Below, piece by piece: positions 2,374-8,169 of a stretch of 8,217 bases of DNA. Every line of letters starts with the position of its first letter. The first letter of the stretch is position 1. Made by a program: the position numbers and the translations under genes. The notes under the pieces were generated by a model. The model ran no database searches. It was given only the letters and a program-made list of their open reading frames with translations, and was not told the DNA's origin. Source of the stretch: JBHIER01 sp046760705 [NCBI: bacterium] (GTDB taxonomy: Bacteria; JBHIER01; G020348925); NCBI GenBank assembly GCA_046760705.1, contig JBHIER010000127.1, positions 1 through 8,217 of the forward strand, given 5' to 3'.

Positions 2374-2523
2374 TTTTTTGGATTTTGGGTCCCTTTTGGA
2401 TTTCGTATTTCATATTTCGTATTTTGCATTTTGCGTTTTAGATCCGCCGGCTTCGCGGAGCACAAGTTTTGAGTTTTGAATTTTGGATTTCTTTTGGATT
2501 TTGGATTTTCGATTTCGGATTTA
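2374..2523. repeat. Degenerate 7-nt tandem repeat array (GATTTTG / ATTTCGT type)
   Basis: The gap between the thioredoxin and cutA genes is almost wholly T-rich low-complexity DNA with a clear 7-base period. Near 2402-2440 units read ATTTCGT, ATTTCAT, ATTTCGT, ATTTTGC, ATTTTGC, GTTTTAG. Near 2494-2523 they read GATTTTG, GATTTTC, GATTTCG, GATTT. The two halves are separated by a GC-rich spacer with a 5-bp inverted repeat, TCCGC (2443-2447) and GCGGA (2455-2459). The minus-strand frame of the array gives a spurious Asn-Pro-Lys/Glu-Ile-rich peptide. This resembles heptanucleotide short tandem repeats known from cyanobacteria and several candidate phyla. The array stops 3 nt before the cutA ATG. 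I see no conventional terminator for the thioredoxin transcript here. Confidence 0.8.
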
Positions 2524-2908: not shown

Positions 2909-2929
2909 AGACCAAAACTGAATAGGATC

Positions 2930-3118
2930 GATCCAGGTGCCCCGAGTCTGTCGGGGAGAATAGCGGAAGACGGTGAGATTCCGTCGCGGCCCCGCCACTG
3001 TGATCGGTTTGAGGCGAGGGGATTGCCTCACCTCCTCCTGGAGCCACTGTTCTGGCATACTGGAATGGGAAGGCTTGGAGGAGGAGACGCCGTCAGTCAG
3101 GAGACCTGCCTGTGTCGC
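2930..3118 (+). promoter_or_regulatory. Cobalamin riboswitch (B12 element)
   Basis: This leader RNA binds a cobalamin and controls the two downstream genes. Recognisable conserved pieces in order are AGGTGCCCCG (2935-2944) with GGGGAGAATAGCGGAA, GGTGAGATTCCGTCGCGG (2972-2989), CCCCGCCACTGTGAT (2990-3004), GAGCCACTG (3041-3049), GGGAAGGC (3067-3074), and the B12 box GTCAGGAGACCTGCC (3096-3110). An 8-bp pairing of CCTCCTCC (3031-3038) with GGAGGAGG (3077-3084) encloses the peripheral arm. The order and spacing are those of the classical AdoCbl-type element, though the preferred ligand form is not decided here. It lies about 145 nt upstream of the S-component start, with intrinsic terminators in between, which suggests control by transcription termination. 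Confidence 0.93.
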
Positions 3119-3173
3119 ATATTTCGTTGGCCTTCGAGGGAAGGTGAGACGGTATTTTTATATTGTATCGGAG

Positions 3174-5796: not shown

Positions 5797-6060
5797 TCAC
5801 TCAGTCAGCACCATCCTCTTAGTATCGTTGAACTTTCCGCCGCTATCAGACGATAGAAGTAGATTCTGTCCCACGTGACGGTCGAGTCACCAGGCTCTTT
5901 GAGCTCATCCACCAATGTCCTGATCTCCAGCCCCAGAAGATTGTAAATCCTCAGGCTGGTGTGGACAGGACTACTCACCAATCACCGGAAGGGAGTAGTG
6001 GATGTGGCTCACTGGATTAAAGGGATTGGGATAGTCATGGGAGGGCACGCAGAAGAGGCA
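5797..6060 (-). pseudogene. Remnant of a secreted protein's FlgD-like / T9SS-type C-terminal sorting domain
   Basis: Read on the minus strand this gives HDYPNPFNPVSHIHYSLP (YPNPFNP at 6033-6013). After a TAG stop (5973-5971) and a frameshift it continues as LRIYNLLGLEIRTLVDELKE and then STVTWD, and after another shift as GKFNDTKRMVLTE, ending at TGA 5799-5797. This matches the C-terminus of the intact secreted protein at 7217-8020 segment by segment. About a dozen residues between VTWD and IYFYRL (GKDSGG..VASG) are missing, so there is a real deletion near 5866 and not only sequencing indels. The upstream catalytic or binding part of the parent protein is absent; only a few uncertain residues precede the YPNPFNP motif. 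It is a genuine gene relic. Confidence 0.8.
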
Positions 6061-7216: not shown

Positions 7217-8020
7217 ATGAAGGAACGGATTCTTACCGGTGGTTGGCCCGCAGCCGTGGGGTTGACGGCTCTCCTGCTCGTCTTCAGCGGACCCCTGCTG
7301 GCTGAAGGGACTGGGAAGACGGCCACCGTATCTATGGGGGAACAACTGCCTCTCCGGGCTGAGGGCAGGGTTGAACTGCCTGTGGTAGTCAACACCAGCG
7401 AGCCCATAGCTGGAGTCCAAATCCGGGCCAGCTACGATGCTGCTCTGATGACCCCCGGAACACCCCGGCTCACCGAGCGCAGTGCGGAGATGACGGTGGC
7501 ATTCAACGACCAGGACGGGGAATTGACCGTTATCGTTTACAGCGCTTTGGGGGAGGTGATTCCAGCGGGTGAGGGGCCTGTGTTAGCTATACCTTTTAAG
7601 GTAGAAGACTTTGGACTTTGGACCTCGGACTTAGGACTGGATTTTGAGGAGGTCATTTTGGCCAGTCCGGCGGCCGAAGCTCTCCCAGTGACGGTCAAAC
7701 CGGGTTCGGTTTCGATAGGGAAGCCAGTACCTACTCGCTACAATCTGGCTCAGAACTATCCTAATCCCTTCAACCCCGAAACCAGTATTCAGTACTCAGT
7801 GGTCAGTGATCAGTCCCCTCCCCACATCACACTAAAGATTTACAATATCCTCGGGGAGGAGGTAAGAACGTTGGTGGACGAGCTGAAAGACGCGGGATAC
7901 TATACGGTCACCTGGGATGGAAAGGATAGTGGTGGCTTGGGTGTCGCCAGTGGGGTGTATTTCTACCGTTTGACGGCGGGTGATTTCACCAGCACGAAGC
8001 GAATGGTTCTCCTGAAGTGA
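7217..8020 (+). CDS. Secreted protein: cohesin-like domain plus FlgD-like / T9SS-type C-terminal sorting domain
   Basis: A 267-residue exported protein. A signal peptide (1-29, core AAVGLTALLLVFSG, cleavage after LLA) leads to a beta-rich region (about 36-167) with the pattern of cohesin-type domains: VELPVVVNTSEPIAGVQIRA (52-71), later GEGPVLAIPFKV (118-129) and a closing VKPGSVSI (160-167). A linker then reaches YPNPFNP (181-187) and the FlgD-like Ig fold (LKIYN, VRTLV, VTWDGKDSGG, GVYFYRLTAG) ending KRMVLLK. In FCB bacteria such tails mark cell-surface or T9SS export. Start 7217 is preferred over 7193 because GGAGGTGAT precedes it and the signal peptide follows at once. Two heptanucleotide repeats lie in frame at residues 131-141 and 191-200. 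The role may be binding or adhesion to a surface partner; no catalytic residues are evident. Confidence 0.8.
   Translation: MKERILTGGWPAAVGLTALLLVFSGPLLAEGTGKTATVSMGEQLPLRAEGRVELPVVVNTSEPIAGVQIRASYDAALMTPGTPRLTERSAEMTVAFNDQDGELTVIVYSALGEVIPAGEGPVLAIPFKVEDFGLWTSDLGLDFEEVILASPAAEALPVTVKPGSVSIGKPVPTRYNLAQNYPNPFNPETSIQYSVVSDQSPPHITLKIYNILGEEVRTLVDELKDAGYYTVTWDGKDSGGLGVASGVYFYRLTAGDFTSTKRMVLLK
7607..7641 (+). repeat. In-frame heptanucleotide repeat (GACTTTG type)
   Basis: Five consecutive 7-nt units lie inside the secreted protein gene: GACTTTG, GACTTTG, GACCTCG, GACTTAG and GACTGGA. They encode DFGLWTSDLGL (residues 131-141) in the cohesin-like region. Because 7 is not a multiple of 3, the frame is kept only by the overall length of the insert. 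The sequence differs from the T-rich array before cutA but has the same 7-nt period. Confidence 0.75.
7788..7815 (+). repeat. In-frame heptanucleotide repeat (TCAGTGA type)
   Basis: Four 7-nt units, TTCAGTA, CTCAGTG, GTCAGTG and ATCAGTC, lie within the FlgD-like tail of the secreted protein. They encode about IQYSVVSDQS (residues 191-200), between the first strand after YPNPFNP and the LKIYN strand. That loop tolerates length variation in the family. The decayed relative on the minus strand carries GGTGATT-GGTGAGT at the corresponding place. Confidence 0.75.
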
Positions 8021-8085: not shown

Positions 8086-8141
8086 TGAACACTCCTTTGC
8101 AGAGTGTTGGTTTACAGAGGAAGGGAACACAGTTCTCTCCA

Positions 8142-8169
8142 TCACTCCAACGTTCCAACACTCCATTGC
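8142..8169. repeat. Short degenerate CACTCCAA-type repeat
   Basis: The stretch before the last start codon reads CACTCCAA, CGTTCCAA, CACTCCAT in succession, a 7-8 nt period. It resembles in style the heptad repeats elsewhere in this window but has a different unit. It sits between the hairpin and the ribosome-binding site of the next gene. Confidence 0.45.

What the first reader, a model, noticed from the sequence alone, without database searches (positions are those of the whole stretch)
7607..7815. Two different heptad repeats inserted in frame within one secreted protein
GACTTTG-type units (residues 131-141) and TCAGTGA-type units (191-200) both sit inside an otherwise conserved two-domain protein, probably in surface loops. 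Since 7 nt units shift frame unless repeats total a multiple of three, retention of frame implies selection. This could be a route for generating loop diversity in surface proteins.
Basis: partly seen in the sequence, partly recalled or inferred. Interest (0 to 1): 0.65.

Follow-up and report, generated by a model that had tools for sequence, protein, structure and literature searches.

The report
Seven-base repeats inside secretion-tail loops
A secreted bacterial protein carries two real arrays of seven-base DNA repeats inside its coding sequence, and one of them lies at a spot in the secretion tail where many sister genes in the nearest sequenced relative carry such repeats too, which points to a DNA-level repeat process tolerated in one protein loop rather than to a special adaptation of this gene.

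Summary
Both 7-mer arrays are real: 7607-7638 and 7783-7814, the second larger than reported. Each exceeds synonymous recoding of its own peptide (p=0.0015; 0 of 2000). The protein (7217-8020) is a cohesin-like region plus a T9SS type A sorting tail.

'Inserted in this protein' is only partly right. In the nearest relative found (CP070758.1 = G001) I counted 137 in-frame tails. The general loop length (28 residues: 72 tails, and 23 of 24 tails from other genomes) shows no 7-periodicity (0 of 72 at p<=.01). A form three residues longer (54 tails, the window's type) shows it in 24 of 54. Some longer loops carry unrelated units. In 2.0 Mb, tail loops (6.6 kb) hold 9 strong arrays, other coding sequence (1.76 Mb) 1. 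Units change together at lags 7 and 14. The one frameshifted G001 loop found is a pseudogene with a sixth unit. Array 1 has no counterpart in 42 paralogue loops.

Best reading: STRR-like heptad dynamics tolerated in one loop, frame kept by purifying selection; no evidence for loop diversification. New variant of a known kind.

The parts
7217..8020 (+). Secreted two-domain protein, 267 aa: N-terminal hydrophobic segment (signal-peptide-like, by eye), cohesin-like region, T9SS type A sorting tail
   Evidence: ORF; TIGR04183 40.9 bits over cut-off 23; FlgD_ig PF13860 45.7 bits over 27, Por_Secre_tail PF18962 26.1 under 27, Cohesin PF00963 23.8 bits under 24.1
7607..7638 (+). Array 1: GACTTTG-type units, 4.6 copies, residues 131-141 (DFGLWTSDLGL) just after the cohesin-like match; no counterpart found in paralogues
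   Evidence: 0 of 42 paralogue loops at p<=.01, 2 of 42 at .05
7783..7814 (+). Array 2: CAGTNNN units, 4.6 copies, residues 189-200 (TSIQYSVVSDQS), overlapping the conserved TxIxY stretch and the following loop of the sorting tail
   Evidence: heptads at the same place in paralogues
7748..8017 (+). T9SS type A (FlgD-Ig-like) sorting tail
   Evidence: FlgD structures matched by sequence
2400..2522 (.). Three intergenic 7-mer runs between the thioredoxin and cutA genes; units of the run at 2492-2522 (GATTTTG) differ from array 1 (GACTTTG) by one base; the relative L001 also has a 7-mer array in this spacer
   Evidence: L001 11575-11610
5806..6040 (-). Degenerate sorting-tail remnant downstream of the TonB receptor gene, frame changed inside the loop and again further on; the relative has an open 28-type tail gene at the same place

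Best explanation
The gene encodes a T9SS cargo. Array 2 is the local copy of a heptad array that belongs to a lineage-specific form of the sorting tail. In that form the strand and loop between PNPFN and LKIYN (T-x-I-x-Y-x-[LIV]...) are written as about five seven-base units. A seven-base unit gives the same seven-residue cyclic peptide in every frame, and units such as CAGATAT (QISDIRY) or CAGTATT (QYSVFSI) give the alternating polar/non-polar pattern that the strand needs. Units are homogenised at DNA level (replication slippage or unit-to-unit conversion, inferred), while purifying selection keeps the reading frame and strand pattern. The loop is the one place in coding sequence where such arrays are commonly tolerated, so unrelated heptad families also appear there in other paralogues. 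Array 1 is a private array, of a unit close to the intergenic one, in a loop at the end of the cohesin-like region, with little or no net length change. Shown: arrays, lag-7 excess over synonymous recoding, place-specific recurrence in one relative, coupled changes between units, a sixth unit that shifts the frame in a pseudogene tail. Inferred: slippage or conversion as the motor; tolerance rather than function as the reason for the place.
For: Lag-7 excess over synonymous recoding in 31-residue tails: 24 of 54 at p<=.01 (33 of 54 at .05) against 0 of 72 28-residue tails at either level. In an earlier set of 130 tails lags 5, 6, 8, 9, 10 gave 5, 0, 0, 0, 0 of 51 31-residue tails at .05. Census of 2.0 Mb, runs >=11: tail loops 9 in 6.6 kb, intergenic 5 in 219 kb, other coding 1 in 1.76 Mb. 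Unrelated units in long loops, read by eye: GGAGACC, GGAGAAC, GCGGAGA, CCTCTTG; 4 of 6 loops of 37-53 residues reach p<=.05. Same-letter deviations from consensus in 45 tails: 39 against 15.8 expected at lag 7, 26 against 11.1 at lag 14, 0 of 300 column shuffles each; without L081 and L097 25 against 11.4 and 18 against 9.4, again 0 of 300. Window against L081: three A/G differences exactly seven bases apart. Codon identity of array codons +0.21 over expectation against +0.07 elsewhere in the tail (p=0.003), no rise in 28-residue tails. Pseudogene tail with six CAG-led units, frameshift and stop in the loop. CAGATAT x3 with up to 3 mismatches: 67 overlapping matches in G001, 1 in the 13 other genomes searched (in G055), reversed-pattern control 0.
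Against: Coupled-change counts treat related paralogues as independent. The codon-identity test has 6 against 41 codons; arginine and serine codon islands inflate some values, and codons 36, 41, 52 and 65 outside the array are high too. The tail tree is weak, so a single ancestral array inherited by all 31-residue tails with slow decay fits part of the data. 30 of 54 31-residue tails do not reach p<=.01, 2 of 6 long loops and all 5 loops of 32-36 residues do not reach .05. A changed unit number was seen once, in a pseudogene. The window's own genome is not held, so its other tails were not seen, and the recurrence rests on one relative.
Confidence: 0.6

Rival explanations
1. Inheritance plus protein constraint only: the strand pattern TxIxYxL happens to be codable with a 7-base near-repeat, one ancestral tail had it, and paralogues inherited it; no ongoing DNA process.
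For: In the tail tree 43 of 52 31-residue rows fall in one group, which also holds 17 of 67 28-residue and 8 of 12 longer rows (support 92, drawn open), and one origin is not excluded; synonymous recoding of the 31-residue peptides already gives lag-7 identity 0.377.
Against: Observed lag-7 identity is 0.494 (z 13); array codons stay alike while many flanking conserved codons are near random; coupled changes at lags 7 and 14; unrelated units at the same loop; array 1 has no counterpart.
Confidence: 0.2
2. One reading: heptad change is a selected generator of surface-loop diversity.
For: Loops of 32-53 residues exist in 11 of 137 tails, 4 of them 7-periodic at .05; the tail marks exported proteins.
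Against: 126 of 137 tails have one of two loop lengths and none has length 38; the window's loop 2 has the same length as that of L081. No allele data.
Confidence: 0.1
3. Contingency (phase-variation) switch: gain or loss of one unit frameshifts the tail and turns sorting off reversibly.
For: A 7-base unit always shifts the frame; one tail with a sixth unit is frameshifted with a stop in the loop; the window's degenerate tail changes frame in its loop.
Against: Both frameshifted tails are decayed with further damage; two other decayed tails of G001 (B0 53036, B0 316113) read through the loop in frame; no frameshifted loop was found in an otherwise intact tail; arrays are short and imperfect.
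Confidence: 0.06
4. The arrays are joints for recombination that swaps or converts tails between cargo genes, or targets for a heptad-specific insertion mechanism.
For: 152 hits to the protein in one genome, list cut; heptads at one place with several unit families; codon identity highest in the array on average.
Against: Codon identity is back at expectation for codons 27-33, although single codons further on are high again, so no long conversion tract is evident; no enzyme or element was found, and none was searched for.
Confidence: 0.1

Closest known systems
Short tandemly repeated repetitive (STRR) heptanucleotides of cyanobacteria and heptameric long SSRs of bacteria
   Same: 7-nt units, several unrelated sequences, direct arrays dispersed in one genome; passages of PMC4679880 and PMC4692102 read
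   Different: Those passages stress sites between genes (TAACTGA upstream of start codons; G-rich heptads under-represented in coding regions). PMC4679880 does consider translated repeats and possible tolerance between modules of a protein, but the passages seen show no recurrent site inside one domain; here the densest site is one loop in many protein genes
Heptad repeats in structured RNA: trnL intron P6b of Nostoc (PMC4476775, passages) and STRR within RNase P RNA (Vioque 1997, seen only as a title in a reference list)
   Same: One stem-loop is occupied by one of two unrelated seven-base classes, with repeated replacement of one class by the other; works alike
   Different: RNA loop instead of protein loop; not many paralogues in one genome
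PARCELs (PMC2996958, abstract) and Rickettsia palindromic elements (recalled; search listing only)
   Same: Repeat DNA spread within protein genes; PARCELs code an amphipathic pattern
   Different: Far longer units (25 residues for PARCELs; RPE size and in-frame habit are recalled); here the unit is 7 nt, not shown to be palindromic or mobile
Coding tandem repeats of Borg elements (PMC9879509, title and start of abstract in a listing)
   Same: Tandem repeats that arise independently and alter protein regions
   Different: Different element type; other details not read
T9SS type A sorting tails (TIGR04183; FlgD Ig-like fold)
   Same: The tail is a member by score; the nearest relative encodes SprA and PorU
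   Different: Loop three residues longer than the general form in the window and in 54 of 137 tails of the relative

Membership tests
STRR / heptameric long SSR | Tandem direct units of 7 nt, more than chance | tested here: met
STRR / heptameric long SSR | Several arrays dispersed in the genome, several unit families | tested here: met
   5 runs in the window; in the relative
STRR / heptameric long SSR | Mainly intergenic, avoided in coding sequence | tested here: not met
   In the relative 9 of 15 runs >=11 lie in tail loops, 5 intergenic, 1 other coding; outside the tail loop the rule holds
STRR / heptameric long SSR | Unit-number variation between strains | not testable with these tools
   No reads or second strain; one pseudogene tail with a sixth unit
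Contingency locus | Reversible frame change in an otherwise intact gene | tested here: inconclusive
   No frameshifted loop found in an otherwise intact tail of G001; the two frameshifted ones seen are decayed; reads needed
T9SS type A sorting tail | TIGR04183 over cut-off | tested here: met
   40.9 bits against 23; the Pfam model PF18962 is just under its own cut-off, 26.1 against 27
T9SS type A sorting tail | T9SS machinery in the genome | tested here: inconclusive
   Met in the relative G001 (SprA 708 bits with neighbours in the frame, PorU 738 bits); the window's own genome is not held
Cohesin domain | PF00963 over gathering score | tested here: not met
   23.8 against 24.1 bits; called cohesin-like only
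Rickettsia palindromic element / PARCEL | Long palindromic coding unit | tested here: not met
   Units are 7-nt direct repeats; no inverted repeat of 14 nt or more overlaps the arrays

The most novel reading that the evidence does not exclude
In this lineage a DNA-level heptad process (slippage and unit conversion) writes protein sequence: it keeps seven-base periodicity in one strand-loop of many secretion tails while many synonymous sites around it have randomised, drives parallel base changes in successive units, some of which change amino acids, and lets one heptad family replace another without breaking the fold, because any stop-free 7-mer array reads as the same cyclic peptide in all frames.
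Probability: 0.3. Interest if true: 0.72.

Novelty: new variant of a known kind. Interest (0 to 1): 0.5.

Why it matters
Heptad repeats are common in bacteria but are described mostly between genes, and why seven bases is an open question. Here is a natural set of paralogous coding arrays, with matched paralogues lacking them as controls, in which one can measure whether repeat dynamics override protein-level selection. It also warns that tail-loop residues in such proteins may reflect DNA repeats and not binding function.

Tried and rejected
Structure of the window protein from a single sequence: pLDDT 33.5, unusable, so loop position rests only on sequence alignment to FlgD and paralogues. 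Period-7 excess by TRF at score >=30 was weak against Markov shuffles in G001 (52 against 36); at >=36 it was 16 against 1, and the compartment census was then done with a lag-run score. Frameshift hunt for phase variation: the 33 regex misses were, by reading, intact tails except three cut by masked N stretches; one true frameshifted loop came. Pattern GACTTTG x3.5 in the relative: 0 matches; the 'phylum' of G001 holds only that genome. Paralogue loop 1: 0 of 42 at p<=.01, 2 of 42 at .05, near chance; these 42 come from tblastn hits up to E 1e-4, so some may not be the same loop.

Counts from different sets: 112 tails (one of them the window), 130 (used for the coupling, tree and other-lag tests), 137 (used for the main counts). 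Of 151 regex places 14 were dropped: two intact tails missed by the C-terminal pattern (B1 301047, E206 16941), three masked, the frameshifted B2 76850, and eight taken as chance by eye, one of which (B0 1086380) starts PNPFNP and may be a decayed tail. Further tails with variant PNPF motifs appear and are not counted. The 31 form is defined by length and the 137 by being in frame, so neither constancy is itself evidence; the evidence is the absence of length 38 and the rarity of frameshifted loops. The set of 45 was meant to leave out the TSIQY kind but kept L081 and L097; one search repeats it without them. 20 of the 120 fetched stretches were chosen for tail hits and kept out of the census but not out of the tail tests; two census blocks (2.0-2.4 and 2.6-3.0 Mb) were also picked with an eye on the list. 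Coding and intergenic labels come from a crude open-reading-frame caller; the one 'other coding' array (TTTTGGA, G001 about 2,231,476) probably lies before the true start, and the 'intergenic' array at 2,676,879 is the pseudogene tail.

Full report
What is there. The window holds dapF (named by eye), an IMPDH/GMP-reductase-like gene, thioredoxin, cutA, a cobalamin riboswitch, a small membrane protein (by eye; 0 Pfam and 0 NCBIfam matches), a B12-receptor-like TonB gene (TIGR01779 213 bits, under its cut-off of 599.7), a stretch with remnants, and at 7217-8020 a 267-residue secreted protein. It has a cohesin-like region (23.8 bits, just under 24.1) and a C-terminal T9SS type A / FlgD-Ig-like sorting tail (TIGR04183 40.9 bits against 23). 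The two arrays are real: GACTTTGGACTTTGGACCTCGGACTTAGGACT at 7607-7638 and CAGTATTCAGTACTCAGTGGTCAGTGATCAGT at 7783-7814. The window has five lag-7 runs of score 8 or more where shuffles give 0.14, and none at lags 4, 5, 8, 9, 10 or 12. Against synonymous recoding of the same peptides with codon usage of the relative, array 1 has p=0.0015 and array 2 is reached in 0 of 2000, so the periodicity is in the DNA beyond what the peptide requires. A pure TCAGTGA array would read SVISDQ-stop; the actual units avoid it.

Where it comes from. The window's own genome is not held. It encodes SprA and PorU over their cut-offs and has 152 matches to the window protein. The best is L081 (51% identity over query residues 17-267, 270-aa frame), a likely orthologue. 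In L081 loop 2 has the same length (YAVVGDQSPPH for YSVVSDQSPPH); loop 1 is two residues shorter and not repetitive.

The sister genes. I held 2.4 Mb of G001 in 120 stretches of 20 kb. A pattern for the tail gave 137 in-frame tails. Measured from N-x-P-N-P-F-N to IYN, 72 have 28 residues, 54 have 31, 11 have 32-53. Of 24 distinct tails read from loci of other genomes 23 have 28 and one 34. The window has 31. In each tail the best lag-7 run was compared with 400 synonymous recodings: at p<=.01, 0 of 72, 24 of 54, 0 of 5 (32-36) and 2 of 6 (37-53); at p<=.05, 0, 33, 0 and 4. Other genomes: 1 of 24 at .05. In an earlier set of 130 tails lags 5, 6, 8, 9, 10 gave, at .05, 0-3 of 67 (28), 5, 0, 0, 0, 0 of 51 (31), and 0 of 12 (longer) except 3 of 12 at lag 9. 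Most 31-residue arrays are CAGATAT-like (TDIRYQI...), some CAGTATT-like (TSIQYSV..., the window's kind); among long loops I read GGAGACC, GGAGAAC, GCGGAGA and CCTCTTG units by eye. CAGATAT x3 with up to 3 mismatches has 67 overlapping matches in G001 and 1 in the 13 other genomes searched; the reversed pattern has none.

Enrichment. In 2.0 Mb, runs of 11 or more at lag 7 are: tail loops 9 in 6.6 kb, intergenic 5 in 219 kb, other coding 1 in 1.76 Mb. At lags 6, 9 and 12, which keep codon phase, other coding has 16, 7 and 5 and tail loops none. The 'other coding' lag-7 array probably precedes the true start and one 'intergenic' one is a pseudogene tail. So strong 7-mer arrays in proteins of this relative are nearly confined to this loop.

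How it behaves. In 45 31-residue tails, letters that depart from consensus do so with the same letter seven bases on 39 times (15.8 expected) and fourteen bases on 26 times (11.1 expected), 0 of 300 shuffles each; lags 5 and 12 are slightly high (24 and 23 of 300 shuffles reach them), and no other lag tested stands out. Without L081 and L097 the values are 25 against 11.4 and 18 against 9.4, and with only the TDIxY/TEIxY kind (40 tails) 23 against 10.9 and 16 against 7.5, each 0 of 300; lag 12 is again slightly high (57 and 10 of 300). Between the window and L081 three A/G differences lie exactly seven bases apart; two of them change an amino acid, the middle one is at a third codon position. 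Where the amino acid is conserved, array codons agree between paralogues by +0.21 over expectation against +0.07 in the rest of the tail; 28-residue tails show no such rise (+0.04 against +0.06). One tail copy in G001, at 2,676,879, has six CAG-led units; it is out of frame, stops in the loop and carries a further stop. It is the only frameshifted loop that I found in the G001 stretches; two other decayed tails read through the loop in frame. The window's own remnant at 5806-6040 changes frame in the loop, where the relative has an open 28-type tail.

Array 1. It has no counterpart in 42 paralogue loops at p<=.01 (2 at .05, near chance); 9 of 42 have the window's loop length and 14 are two residues shorter. 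Its unit differs by one base from the intergenic GATTTTG run of this window. It is thus a private array of a unit close to the local intergenic one, with at most a small change of length.

Interpretation. A stop-free unit of seven bases reads as the same cyclic heptapeptide in all frames, so heptads can be gained at any frame, while a net change not divisible by three breaks the tail. The simplest account is DNA-level homogenisation of heptads, tolerated where the strand pattern fits, with frame kept by purifying selection. Plain inheritance of one ancestral array explains part (the tree joins 43 of 52 31-residue rows in one weak group that also holds 17 28-residue and 8 longer rows). A switch function cannot be excluded without reads.

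Known relatives. Heptameric repeats in bacteria, their mainly intergenic place and the proposed link to polymerase slippage are described in PMC4679880 and PMC4692102 (passages read). The nearest parallel in behaviour is the Nostoc trnL P6b loop, where one seven-base class replaces another at one structural site (PMC4476775, passages). I saw no paper on heptads in T9SS tails in the capped listings of searches of the held library, which lacks most subscription journals.

Noticed in passing
window 5806-6040 (-): Degenerate T9SS sorting tail with frame changes, downstream of the TonB receptor gene; CP070758.1 has a 1160-codon open frame ending in a 28-type tail in the same position (L001 14203-17682).
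   Followed up: partly
window 2918-3127 (+): Cobalamin riboswitch (Rfam 100.7 bits) ahead of a small membrane protein and a BtuB-like TonB receptor.
   Followed up: no
window 8137-8165: Period-8 array (CTCCAACA, 3.6 copies) downstream of the finding's gene.
   Followed up: no
L140 and L210 (G001 580,001-600,000 and 4,760,001-4,780,000): Tail loops of 51 and 53 residues: the one in L210 holds CCTCTTG-type units next to CAAGAA-like units (by eye); the one in L140 has a long insert without significant 7-periodicity.
   Followed up: partly
G001 2,676,879-2,676,918: The strongest CAGATAT array of the census (score 24), in an orphan decayed tail after an unrelated gene.
   Followed up: partly
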